Shown here: one piece after another, positions 13,340 through 46,183 of the stretch
How the letters are laid out: each line of letters starts with the position of its first letter
Position numbering within the stretch: the stretch's first letter is position 1
Notes under the pieces: model-generated
Database searches by the model: none
Told to the model about the DNA's origin: nothing
What the model saw: only the letters and a program-made list of their open reading frames with translations
Made by a program: the position numbers and the translations under genes
NCBI GenBank assembly: GCA_902765005.1
Contig: CACWYB010000003.1
Span: 62,001-126,000 of the forward strand
Source: an uncultured Eubacteriales bacterium
GTDB taxonomy: Bacteria > Bacillota > Clostridia > Christensenellales > CAG-138
DNA length: 64,000 nt
Reading direction: 5' to 3'

Positions 13340-13362
13340 CTCCCGCGCCCGTTCGAATCCCC
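13340..13362 (-). repeat. Truncated second copy of the tRNA-Ala-associated structured repeat
   Basis: On the minus strand these 23 bases repeat exactly the first 23 bases of the full element at 13413-13517 (GGGGATTCGAACGGGCGCGG and three more). The copy then breaks off and unrelated sequence follows. It lies one period (155 bp) downstream of the full element and after a second terminator-like hairpin, so it is the remains of a further array unit. Confidence 0.75.
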
Positions 13363-13370
13363 TTTCAGGT

Positions 13371-13413
13371 AAGACAAAACAAAGACACCGGTTTCGGTGT
13401 CTCTGTTTGTCTT
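13371..13413 (-). terminator. Terminator-like palindrome after the Ala-associated element
   Basis: A core stem AGACACCG/CGGTGTCT with a short AAAC loop is flanked by A-rich sequence on one side and T-rich sequence (TTGTTTTGTCTT) on the other. It directly follows the CCA-like end of the element at 13413-13517 on the minus strand and has the form of a Rho-independent terminator. Confidence 0.65.
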
Positions 13414-13517
13414 GGTGGAGCATAGGGGATTCGCTCTCGGCCTCGACGGCCTCGGTCAGGGCGCGGCTCTGAACGTCCACCGGACGTTCATTCACTCCCG
13501 CGCCCGTTCGAATCCCC
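13413..13517 (-). repeat. tRNA-3'-end-bearing structured repeat (Ala type, full unit)
   Basis: A 105-nt unit downstream of tRNA-Ala on the same strand. It opens with GGGGATTCG and closes with CGAATCCCC, which pair perfectly. Its last 21 bases are an exact copy of the 3' end of the neighbouring tRNA-Ala, including CCA. Inside is a long hairpin: GGGCGCGG with CCGCGCCC outside, GAACGTCC with GGACGTTC inside, and a GGT loop. A second small stem (GAGGCC region) follows. The same architecture with different bases recurs next to tRNA-Val at 45957-46061, where a full unit also measures 105 nt. The function is unknown. It is more likely a structured RNA or a small tRNA-targeting element than a protein gene. 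Confidence 0.85.
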
Positions 13518-13528
13518 ATCATTGTGTC

Positions 13529-13567
13529 AAAAGAAAAAGGGCATCCGATGGATGCCCATTTTCTTTT
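13529..13567 (-). terminator. Terminator of tRNA-Ala
   Basis: Stem GGGCATCC/GGATGCCC with a 3-nt loop, A-rich before and T-rich after (TTTTTCTTTT on the minus strand), starting directly at the tRNA's CCA end. It is a strong Rho-independent terminator, near-symmetrical and so possibly bidirectional. Confidence 0.85.
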
Positions 13568-13642
13568 GGTGGAGCATAGGGGATTCGAACCCCTGACCTC
13601 AACATTGCGAACGTTGCGCGCTACCAACTGTGCTAATGCCCC
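13567..13642 (-). tRNA. tRNA-Ala (anticodon CGC)
   Basis: Seventy-six nucleotides fold as a cloverleaf with encoded CCA. The acceptor is GGGGCAT/ATGCTCC with the G3-U70 wobble pair that marks alanine tRNAs. The anticodon stem is CAACG/TGTTG around loop TTCGCAA, giving anticodon CGC for the GCG codon. The T-arm is AGGGG-TTCGAAT-CCCCT. The D-stem GCAC/GCGC has one A-C mismatch, which is slightly unusual. Downstream on the same strand lie a terminator and repeats carrying a copy of its 3' end. Confidence 0.93.
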
Positions 13643-44684: not shown

Positions 44685-45809
44685 ATGAACTTCTTACCGG
44701 AAAACACAAAAAAACTCGGCTTCGGCCTTATGCGGCTGCCCGTCCTGAACGGAAACGGGGAGGATATCGACCTTAAGCAGGTTTCGGCCATGGCCGACCG
44801 CTTCCTGGAGCAGGGGTTCACTTACTTTGACACGGCCTATCCCTATCACAACGGCTTCTCCGAGCGGGCGGTGAAGAAGTGCCTGGTGGAGCGCCATCCA
44901 AGGGAAAGTTTTCTCCTGGCGGATAAGATGCCCGTTTTCCGCCTGAAAGAGAAAGGGGACGTGATTCCCATCTTTGAGGAGCAGCTGGAGCGCACCGGCG
45001 CGGGCTACTTCGACATGTACCTGCTCCACGCCCTGGATAAGGACCGGCTTTCCACCGTGGAGAGCTGCCAGGTGTGGGAACAGCTTCTTGAGGAGAAGAA
45101 AAAGGGCCGCATCAAGCACCTTGGGTTCTCCTTCCACGATTCTCCCGAAGTGCTGGACCAGATCCTGACCGCTCATCCGGAGGCGGAGTTCGTTCAGCTG
45201 CAGATCAACTATGCCGACTGGGAGGACCCGGAGGTCCAGTCCCGCCGCTGCTATGAAACGGCCCAAAAGCACGGCAAGCCCGTCATCGTTATGGAGCCCA
45301 TCCGGGGCGGCAGCCTTGCCTCGGAGAACCTGGTCTGTGCGCCGCTGTTGAAGGGCGCCGCCCCCAAGGCCAGCCTGGCCGCCTGGGCGTTGCGGTTTGT
45401 GGCCAGCCTGCCCGGCGTGGCGGTTGTCCTTTCCGGCATGTCCGCCTATGAGCAGCTGGAGGAAAACACAGCCCTGTTTAACACCATGCAGCCGCTTTCG
45501 GAAGAGGAGCGGGCCATCCTCGCCCAGGGAGCGGAGCAGCTTCGAAAGGCCGCCGCCATCCCCTGCACGGCCTGTAAATACTGCGTGGAAGGCTGCCCGG
45601 CGAATATCAACATCCCGGCCATCCTGGACCTGCTGAACGAATACGACCGCTTCGGTTCCCTAATAAGCGCCAAGCGAAGCTACGGTTTTCGGACTCGGGA
45701 CAAAGGCCTTGCCTCCGCCTGCGTGAGCTGTGGCCAGTGCCTGGATGCCTGCCCCCAGCATATCGAGAGCGCGGTGCACATGGCCAGGGCAGCGAAGCTG
45801 TTTGAGTGA
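44685..45809 (+). CDS. Aldo/keto reductase with C-terminal 4Fe-4S ferredoxin domain
   Basis: A 374-residue fusion of the same general type as the one at 36298 but distinct in sequence. The catalytic tyrosine lies in FDTAYPYHNG and the lysine in LLADKMPV. The C-terminal part carries CTACKYCVEGCP and CVSCGQCLDACPQ, typical two-cluster ferredoxin motifs. Probably an NAD(P)H- or ferredoxin-linked oxidoreductase of unknown substrate. The start follows AAAGGAGGGG and a good promoter. Five bases after its stop the decayed end of a tRNA-associated repeat begins. Confidence 0.92.
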   Translation: MNFLPENTKKLGFGLMRLPVLNGNGEDIDLKQVSAMADRFLEQGFTYFDTAYPYHNGFSERAVKKCLVERHPRESFLLADKMPVFRLKEKGDVIPIFEEQLERTGAGYFDMYLLHALDKDRLSTVESCQVWEQLLEEKKKGRIKHLGFSFHDSPEVLDQILTAHPEAEFVQLQINYADWEDPEVQSRRCYETAQKHGKPVIVMEPIRGGSLASENLVCAPLLKGAAPKASLAAWALRFVASLPGVAVVLSGMSAYEQLEENTALFNTMQPLSEEERAILAQGAEQLRKAAAIPCTACKYCVEGCPANINIPAILDLLNEYDRFGSLISAKRSYGFRTRDKGLASACVSCGQCLDACPQHIESAVHMARAAKLFE

Positions 45810-45813
45810 GAAA

Positions 45814-45911
45814 GATATAGGGACTCTCACACTCGGCTGCGGCCTCGCTCAGCTCGCGGCTCTGAAGCCCCACTGGGGTTTCATTCACTACCGCGAGCGG
45901 TTCGAGCCCCC
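45814..45911 (-). repeat. tRNA-3'-end-bearing structured repeat (Val type, copy 2, truncated)
   Basis: Ninety-eight bases nearly identical to the unit at 45964-46061. The last seven bases (acceptor end and CCA) are missing and replaced by sequence next to the aldo/keto reductase stop. One change (GAAACCCC instead of GAAGCCCC) breaks a pair in the inner hairpin, so this distal copy appears to be decaying. Confidence 0.88.
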
Positions 45912-45918
45912 TCCGATT

Positions 45919-45960
45919 ACCAATAAAAAAGCCACCCATTTGGGCGGCTTCTTTATTGGT
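45919..45960 (-). terminator. Terminator-like palindrome between Val-associated repeats
   Basis: Nineteen-base arms beginning ACCAATAAA and ending TTTATTGGT around a four-base loop, with one mismatch or two. It follows the CCA-like end of the element at 45957-46061. Confidence 0.8.
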
Positions 45961-46061
45961 GGGGATGTAGGGACTCTCACACTCGGCTGCGTCCTCGCTC
46001 AGCTCGCGGCTCTGAAGCCCCACAGGGGCTTCATTCACTACCGCGAGCGGTTCGAGTCCCC
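45957..46061 (-). repeat. tRNA-3'-end-bearing structured repeat (Val type, full unit)
   Basis: A 105-nt unit downstream of tRNA-Val on the same strand. It begins GGGGACTCGAA and ends with GAGTCCCTACATCCCC plus ACCA, an exact copy of the T-arm/acceptor 3' strand of tRNA-Val. Outer bases GGGACTC/GAGTCCC pair; inside, GCTCGCGG pairs with CCGCGAGC and GAAGCCCC with GGGGCTTC around a TGT loop. The unit has the same length and layout as the Ala-type element at 13413-13517 but different paired bases. Function unknown. Confidence 0.87.
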
Positions 46062-46068
46062 TCCGATT

Positions 46069-46110
46069 ACCAATAAAGAAGCCACCCGGTTGGGTGGCTT
46101 CTTTATTGGT
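46069..46110 (-). terminator. Terminator of tRNA-Val
   Basis: A perfect 19-base inverted repeat (ACCAATAAAGAAGCCACCC and its complement) with a four-base loop starts inside the tRNA's CCA end and finishes in a T-rich tail. It is symmetrical and may work both ways. Confidence 0.9.
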
Positions 46111-46183
46111 GGGGATGTAGGGACTCGAACCCTAGACCTCTGCGATGTGAACACAGCGCTCTAACCAGCTGAGCTACATCCCC
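46107..46183 (-). tRNA. tRNA-Val (anticodon CAC)
   Basis: Seventy-seven nucleotides with encoded CCA. Acceptor GGGGATG/CATCCCC, D-arm GCTC/GAGC, anticodon stem CTGTG/CGCAG around loop TTCACAT (anticodon CAC, reading GTG) and T-arm TAGGG-TTCGAGT-CCCTA. All stems are intact. Two repeats carrying its 3' end follow downstream. Confidence 0.96.

What the first reader, a model, noticed from the sequence alone, without database searches (positions are those of the whole stretch)
45814..46183. Tandem structured repeats carrying the 3' end of tRNA-Val
Downstream of tRNA-Val(CAC) on its own strand lie two near-identical units with a 150-bp period. Each full unit is 105 nt and has complementary ends (GGGACTC with GAGTCCC) and a nested internal hairpin. 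It finishes with an exact copy of the tRNA's T-arm/acceptor 3' strand and CCA. A perfect 19-base palindrome acting as a terminator then separates units. The second copy has lost its last seven bases and one base pair, as if decaying. Nothing I know of explains this layout. Possible readings are a tRNA-mimicking small RNA processed at the CCA end, or a tiny non-autonomous element that inserts at tRNA 3' ends and rebuilds them.
Basis: partly seen in the sequence, partly recalled or inferred. Interest (0 to 1): 0.9.

Follow-up and report, generated by a model that had tools for sequence, protein, structure and literature searches.

The report
Hairpin cassettes that rebuild tRNA ends
Beside many of its tRNA genes this bacterium carries short DNA cassettes, predicted to fold into hairpins, that hold a backward and a forward copy of that very tRNA's end; they are likely tiny mobile elements that would slip into a tRNA gene and restore it.

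Summary
After a tRNA or tmRNA comes a terminator T, an inverse copy A' of that RNA's T arm, a hairpin-rich core X, and a direct copy A2 of its 3' end from the T loop on (A-T-A'-X-A2), often in tandem. By strict criteria it follows 15 of 27 terminal RNAs examined here and 13 of 23 in a sister species; mismatched control 17 of 7022. One core type (model R1) has 20 strong copies here and occurs in all 12 genomes searched of the genus. Its loop bases are near-invariant while its stems change by compensated double changes (355 of 1759 cells) almost without G-U pairs (GT:AC 16:15; neighbouring terminators 54:6), so pairing is kept in DNA rather than RNA. A' and A2 instead stay locked to the tRNA sequence. 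At tRNA-Pro two species differ by one cassette bounded exactly from T loop to CCA. I read the units as minimal integrative cassettes that restore the tRNA, moved by an unidentified recombinase (inferred). No integron integrase passed its cut-off and no resident Y1 transposase fits. A CCA-ended small RNA is disfavoured.

The parts
46107..46183 (-). tRNA-Val(CAC); its 3' part from the T loop on is 'A' (copy A1)
   Evidence: ARAGORN; Rfam
46069..46110 (-). T1: perfect 19-bp palindrome, terminator, begins inside the tRNA's CCA
   Evidence: inverted repeat I2
46050..46061 (-). A'1: inverse complement of the tRNA's T arm (GGGGACTCGAAC)
   Evidence: (I11)
46002..46049 (-). core hairpin 1 (model R1): stem P2, loops AGTGAA/GAG, stem P3
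   Evidence: E 3.0e-14; covariation
45977..46001 (-). tail with small hairpin (P4)
   Evidence: fold
45957..45976 (-). A2 of unit 1: 20-nt exact direct copy of the tRNA 3' end with CCA
45919..45960 (-). T2: second terminator palindrome (90% complementary arms)
   Evidence: I4
45900..45911 (-). A'2: inverse T-arm copy of unit 2, one change
45852..45899 (-). core hairpin 2 (model R1)
   Evidence: E 2.3e-13
45818..45826 (-). A2 of unit 2, decayed (9 nt still exact)
13567..13642 (-). tRNA-Ala(CGC)
13529..13566 (-). T of the tRNA-Ala unit
13506..13517 (-). A' of the tRNA-Ala unit (GGGGATTCGAAC)
13459..13505 (-). core hairpin of the tRNA-Ala unit (model R1)
   Evidence: E 2.0e-14; DNA fold of 13424-13520 z -5.44
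13413..13433 (-). A2 of the tRNA-Ala unit: 21-nt exact copy from C56 to CCA
13351..13412 (-). second terminator palindrome and A' of a broken second unit
   Evidence: sequence

Best explanation
Behind this tRNA-Val gene, and behind 15 of the 27 terminal tRNA/tmRNA genes examined in this genome, lies a DNA unit made of a terminator, an inverse copy of that RNA's T arm, a core predicted to fold into hairpins and a direct copy of the RNA's 3' end, and the unit is likely a minimal non-autonomous integrative cassette that would enter the tRNA's T loop as folded DNA, by a recombinase supplied in trans, and so restore the tRNA's 3' end. In this reading the cassette is [A-T-A'-X]. It carries a spare 3' end with terminator, so the tRNA stays intact after insertion, and the old 3' end (A2) is displaced downstream, where it may decay. 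A' and A2 pair across X, giving a three-way hairpin with one arm equal to the tRNA's T arm; that folded form would be the recombination site, much as a folded attC is for integrons. Shown: the architecture, its tRNA specificity, the near-invariant loops, the Watson-Crick-only stems, the locking of A' and A2 to the tRNA, and one cassette-exact difference between species. Inferred: movement, the folded substrate, and the enzyme.
For: tRNA-specific units: 39 of 90 terminal RNAs in four genomes against 17 of 7022 mismatched pairs (Fisher p 5e-65; rows are not independent). A2 fits the local tRNA at least as well as every other of 23 types in 96 of 107 units, A' in 73 of 107. Breakpoints fall in the T loop: A2 starts at 53-57 in 64 of 65 measured units, A' ends at 52-54 in 61 of 65; T loop and anticodon loop are known crossover subsites of tDNA islands (PMC4383910, passages), and the tRNA-Pro(GGG) unit breaks in the anticodon-arm region. 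Filled/less-filled pair: at tRNA-Pro(CGG) G001 has 219 bp more than G006, flanks 123/125 and 150/152, bounded by a 22-nt repeat running from C56 to CCA plus A, with G006's terminator directly after A2 in G001. DNA, not RNA: GT:AC 16:15 in core stems against 54:6 in the adjoining terminators and 81:14 in tRNA stems; Fisher p 1.1e-4 and 3.4e-4. Loop bases at 98-100% except one A at 90% while stems change, as expected if a protein reads the loops of a hairpin. P1 arms locked to the tRNA: compensated double changes 6 of 810 cells against 355 of 1759 in the core.
Against: No enzyme found: integron integrase over cut-off in 0 of 103 family genomes (also 0 of 14 controls, so without positive control) and Y1 transposase in 2 of 12 genomes of the genus. 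No sign of recent spread between tRNAs: 0 of 364 same-genome, different-tRNA pairs share both stems. Of 183 large-indel comparisons (overlapping pairs) only two have a junction repeat of 10 nt or more, and only the tRNA-Pro one is cassette-exact; others join inside the repeated parts. In that pair the two units of G001 share A'-X and differ in T, which also suits local duplication and shuffling, and gain versus loss is not settled. One core lies on the 5' side of a tRNA-Leu without an A'. Cores also occur away from tRNAs in viral contigs (15 of 142 contexts).
Confidence: 0.4

Rival explanations
1. By-product of replication: template switching at two natural palindromes of a tRNA gene, the terminator and the T arm, made a small tandem inversion duplication (A-T / T-A' / A-T). 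Later switching keeps all arms perfect and rewrites A' and A2 from the selected tRNA. X is a hairpin repeat caught at the apex.
For: The architecture is what two fold-backs would give; A' often reaches into the acceptor stem (up to 24-25 nt); Watson-Crick-only stems with double changes match template-switch repair (PMC8794818, abstract and introduction start); array changes at repeated parts.
Against: It does not explain near-invariant loop bases at many loci and in several families, nor why an X of some kind lies between A' and A2 in the units I read.
Confidence: 0.22
2. Fossils of ordinary tDNA islands: integrases put larger elements into these tRNAs, the insides were deleted, and attachment-site arms were left as T-A'-X between the restored tRNA and the displaced fragment.
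For: Restored target plus displaced fragment is the island signature (PMC4383910); by eye, foreign DNA enters tRNAs beside units in L099, L105, L116, L249, L254, L259, L265.
Against: Units of one design sit at many different tRNAs, stems are kept paired long after any insertion, and ordinary double-stranded attachment arms need no inverse T-arm copy.
Confidence: 0.13
3. A functional structure selected at the host's tRNA genes: a cruciform or an RNA made by read-through that insulates, terminates or regulates the tRNA gene through its inverse T-arm copy.
For: Present at the same tRNAs in many species; A' and A2 T-arm parts locked to the tRNA; strong covariation.
Against: The unit lies behind a terminator; no G-U excess on either strand's reading (GT:AC 16:15); no Rfam family; many terminal tRNAs, and most of those examined in G012 (16 of 19), have none.
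Confidence: 0.13

Closest known systems
tDNA genomic islands (Islander type)
   Same: Restored tRNA/tmRNA next to the element, displaced 3' fragment at the far end, breaks in T loop or anticodon region, tandem arrays
   Different: Units of roughly 110-220 bp with no integrase gene, and an inverse tRNA copy inside; Islander's islands are multigene and must hold an integrase gene (PMC4383910, passages)
Integron cassettes / attC sites (CALINs: clusters without integrase)
   Same: Folded hairpin flanked by inverse boxes, variable terminal structure, recognition by structure rather than stem sequence, arrays (PMC2727003, passages; CALIN from an abstract start)
   Different: No integron integrase over cut-off in 103 genomes; the outer box is the local tRNA's T arm and not a fixed R box; cargo is a tRNA end and terminator
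REP/RAYT palindromes and MITE-like repeats
   Same: Short dispersed palindromes with conserved tags and variable stems; some cores here sit inside other palindromes in viral contigs
   Different: Target-specific ends; Y1 transposase in only 2 of 12 genomes of the genus
Template-switch made hairpins / tandem inversion duplications
   Same: Inverse copies made at palindromes; perfect Watson-Crick stems
   Different: Would not fix a 50-nt core with near-invariant loops at many loci and in several families
Rickettsia palindromic elements (recalled; only search listings and one passage seen)
   Same: Palindromic elements of about 100-150 bp, said to enter genes
   Different: No copying of the target's own end that I know of

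Membership tests
tDNA genomic island | intact tRNA plus displaced fragment of the same tRNA, same orientation, downstream | tested here: met
tDNA genomic island | integrase gene inside the element | tested here: not met
   the 150-bp units of the window have no room for one; the ORFs listed over them run through the repeats and look spurious
Integron cassette array | integron integrase (TIGR02249) in the genome | tested here: not met
   0 of 103 family genomes over the cut-off; 0 of 14 controls over it either, so no positive control
Integron cassette array | folded site with paired outer boxes, unpaired spacer, inner stem, variable tip | tested here: inconclusive
   three DNA folds fit in shape (z -4.7, -5.4, -6.1; a fourth, L328, badly placed interval, z 0.44); recombination not testable here
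REP/RAYT | resident Y1 transposase (PF01797) | tested here: not met
   2 of 12 genomes of the genus
Structured RNA (Rfam-type) | match to a described family | tested here: not met
   window at gathering: tRNAs only; 7 loci at E<=5: besides tRNA only hits below gathering; 18 loci at gathering: tRNAs only
Structured RNA (Rfam-type) | covariation that passes through G-U pairs | tested here: not met
   GT:AC 16:15, controls 40:7, 41:7, 54:6
Active mobile element | presence/absence at one site with exact ends | tested here: inconclusive
   one exact case (tRNA-Pro), polarity open

The most novel reading that the evidence does not exclude
A new class of integrase-less tDNA micro-elements whose recombination site is a folded DNA hairpin with fixed loops, and whose target address is an inverse copy of the tRNA's T arm carried inside the element, so that a cassette fits only its own tRNA and rebuilds it on entry.
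Probability: 0.3. Interest if true: 0.9.

Novelty: categorically new. Interest (0 to 1): 0.8.

Why it matters
If the reading holds, bacteria have mobile cassettes that carry no gene, address their target by copying it, and leave essential tRNAs working. It would join integron-like folded-site recombination with tRNA-targeted integration and give a natural set of orthogonal insertion sites. Even under the replication reading, these loci are a rare record of how hairpin stems are rewritten in DNA with both arms changing together. They also warn that covariation alone does not prove an RNA: here it is strong but lacks the G-U signature.

Tried and rejected
tRNA-mimicking RNA: rejected as first choice because of the G-U test. 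In arms P1 the test is neutral: GT:AC 27:32 over 9 bp and 34:22 over 11 bp. Y1/RAYT partner: rejected. Integron integrase: rejected with the reserve that no control genome passed the cut-off. Rfam: nothing. Recent transposition between tRNAs of one genome: not supported. A search in phages gave mainly tRNA matches in the listed rows, in plasmids one weak 27% match. Pfam found nothing for a 67-residue piece next to the tRNA-Ala unit of L116. Literature: eight searches answered and five papers looked at in passages or abstract; none of the listings or passages described this arrangement. That is no proof that it is unpublished; subscription journals and preprints are not held.

Full report
1. 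Check of the observation. The tRNA-Val(CAC) gene is at 46107-46183 minus. On its strand two 150-nt copies follow (45964-46113 and 45814-45963, 94% identical). The terminator arm is a perfect 19-nt inverted repeat. Copy 1 ends with a 20-nt exact repeat of the tRNA 3' end; copy 2 keeps 9 nt of it exactly. The unit folds below 200 shuffles as RNA (z -4.59 and -3.80 for two cuts of copy 1; -3.35 for copy 2, where 1 of 200 shuffles folded as well) and as DNA (z -4.70). The window's other tRNA, Ala(CGC), has such a unit too (13413-13566).

2. A genome-wide arrangement. A blastn search of the assembly (2.38 Mb, 45 contigs, 77% complete) with the 150-nt unit gave 31 matches at E<=10; the best loci lie behind tRNA or tmRNA genes. 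The general form is A-T-A'-X-A2: the RNA's 3' end, a palindromic terminator, an inverse copy of the T arm (in some units as far as the CCA), a hairpin-rich core, and a direct copy of the 3' end from the T loop. A 50-nt covariance model of one core type (R1; 50 sequences chosen by an exact pattern, 17 pairs) finds 20 strong copies here (E<=3.2e-10) and three weak ones. Of the 20, 17 lie behind a tRNA or tmRNA called by ARAGORN: Ala-CGC, Ala-GGC, Arg-CCT, Gln-CTG, Glu-CTC, Leu-CAG, Ser-GGA, Trp one each, Val-CAC 2, tmRNA 2, Ser-GCT 5. Two follow a tRNA cluster ending in a tRNA-Cys-like stretch that the program does not call, and one follows a tRNA-Leu-like 3' part that Rfam does not call either. 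Other tRNAs carry units with other cores (Leu-TAA, Ser-CGA, Pro-CGG, Lys-CTT, Arg-CCG, Thr-GGT).

3. How specific are the ends? Among 142 distinct core contexts, 107 have a tRNA/tmRNA within 900 nt upstream; A2 matches the local tRNA at least as well as any other of 23 types in 96 of 107 and A' in 73 of 107. The other 35 are 15 contexts in viral contigs, two of which (L081) have tRNA-like copies by eye, and 20 in other loci, where by eye several have a tRNA 3' part whose 5' half has been replaced or cut off. A test that does not depend on the core asked for A2>=12 nt and A'>=9 nt before it within 500 nt: 15 of 27 terminal RNAs in G000, 13 of 23 in G006 (same genus), 3 of 19 in G012 and 8 of 21 in G035 (two other genera); mismatched control 17 of 7022. 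RNAs with N within 200 nt downstream or under 200 nt of sequence were dropped, and for G012 and G035 I had fetched 20 chosen regions each out of 47 and 46 tRNAs. Breakpoints measured in 65 of the 107 units: A2 begins at tRNA position 51 (1), 53 (9), 54 (9), 55 (23), 56 (16), 57 (7); A' ends at 52 (18), 53 (30), 54 (13), others 4.

4. Range. R1 at E<=1e-4 is in 42 of 103 genomes of the family: all 12 searched of the genus (5-20 copies) and 30 of 91 others (1-4 copies). At E<=1e-6 it is in 14 of 297 genomes drawn from the order, six of them in other families. There too it sits at tRNAs in L341 and L342 (Ala), L344 (Ser), L346 (Tyr) and L347 (Asn, tandem), while L345 shows none and L343 has it on the 5' side of a tRNA-Leu inside a partial direct copy, without A'. 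In G012 and G035 the arrangement recurs with unrelated cores, usually two hairpins between A' and A2 (read by eye).

5. DNA or RNA? In the alignment of 122 model hits (104 distinct; fitted to the model) 97.3% of cells pair, 355 of 1759 have both sides changed, and the covariation score is 0.551 against 0.155 for shuffles and at most 0.117 for slid structures. In RNA, G-U is tolerated and A-C is not: tRNA acceptor stems of the same loci give GT:AC 40:7, T stems 41:7, terminators 54:6. Core stems give 16:15, or 11:17 in the pattern-picked set; Fisher p 1.1e-4 against terminators and 1.3e-6 for the pattern-picked set. So core pairing is kept as Watson-Crick DNA. The unpaired bases hardly vary (98-100%, one A at 90%). 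The outer arms behave differently: over 9 positions in 90 of 107 units both arms equal the tRNA in 663 of 810 cells, A' alone departs in 107, A2 alone in 31, and compensated double changes are 6. P1 is thus locked to the tRNA sequence, P2 and P3 are free to change together. Related rows are not independent, so the p-values are optimistic.

6. Dynamics. At tRNA-Pro(CGG) G001 has 219 bp more than G006, flanks 123/125 and 150/152, bounded by a 22-nt repeat from C56 to CCA plus A; the terminator that follows A in G006 follows A2 in G001. This is what insertion of [A-T-A'-X] at the T loop would give; deletion between the repeats would look the same. At tRNA-Trp and tRNA-Ser(CGA) a species has a further unit next to the tRNA with a core different from the older one, though at Trp the new unit looks recombinant. 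Most other large differences join within repeated parts, e.g. a 9-nt tail repeat at Arg(ACG). Stems are not shared between different tRNAs of one genome (0 of 364 pairs) but are between the same tRNA in different genomes (about 25 of 202) and in tandems (7 of 28). So arrays evolve locally, and recent jumping between tRNAs is not seen.

7. Mechanism. I favour a cassette that enters the T loop and brings a new 3' end and terminator. A' with A2 would form the outer stem of a folded site, fixed loops would be read by a protein, and stems are free. This resembles attC (paired boxes, spacer, variable tip, structure-led recognition; PMC2727003, passages) and island insertion into tDNA (PMC4383910, passages), but it is a member of neither: no integron integrase passed the cut-off and no integrase gene is in the units. 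The enzyme, the folded substrate and the movement are inferred. The main rival is template switching at the terminator and T-arm palindromes (PMC8794818, abstract and introduction start), which explains perfect arms well but not the fixed loops.

8. Verdict. Real, tRNA-locked, DNA-level, and unlike the kinds I compared; mechanism open. Confidence in the cassette reading 0.4.

Noticed in passing
L099, L105, L249, L254, L259, L265: Foreign DNA appears to enter tRNA or tmRNA genes just upstream of these units (tRNA 5' half missing, 3' part with unit kept), read by eye; the tRNA loci look like integration hot spots.
   Followed up: partly
L116:1593-3032 (minus): An ORF that looks like a large serine recombinase (recalled resemblance; Pfam found nothing for its last 67 residues) ends directly at the tRNA-Ala-like 3' end before a unit.
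   Followed up: partly
L010:340-790: A tRNA-Cys-like sequence broken after the anticodon arm, followed by two cores and a short acceptor-end copy; not called as a tRNA.
   Followed up: no
L168 and L221: A tRNA-Leu-like 3' part without recognisable 5' half, in two species, followed by units of two core types.
   Followed up: no
L343/L111 (G046): A core in the D-arm region of a partial direct copy of tRNA-Leu lying on the 5' side of the intact gene, no inverse copy.
   Followed up: no
L082-L093: Cores away from tRNAs in viral contigs, apparently inside other palindromic repeats.
   Followed up: partly
L220 (G006), between units behind tmRNA, and L227 behind tRNA-Pro: A short ORF lies between units at tmRNA, and a gene with zinc-ribbon-like sequence (recalled) lies behind the tRNA-Pro unit: possible cargo.
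   Followed up: no
window 45607-46038 (-) and 45730-46164 (+): Listed ORFs run through the units and would give spurious repetitive proteins if annotated.
   Followed up: no
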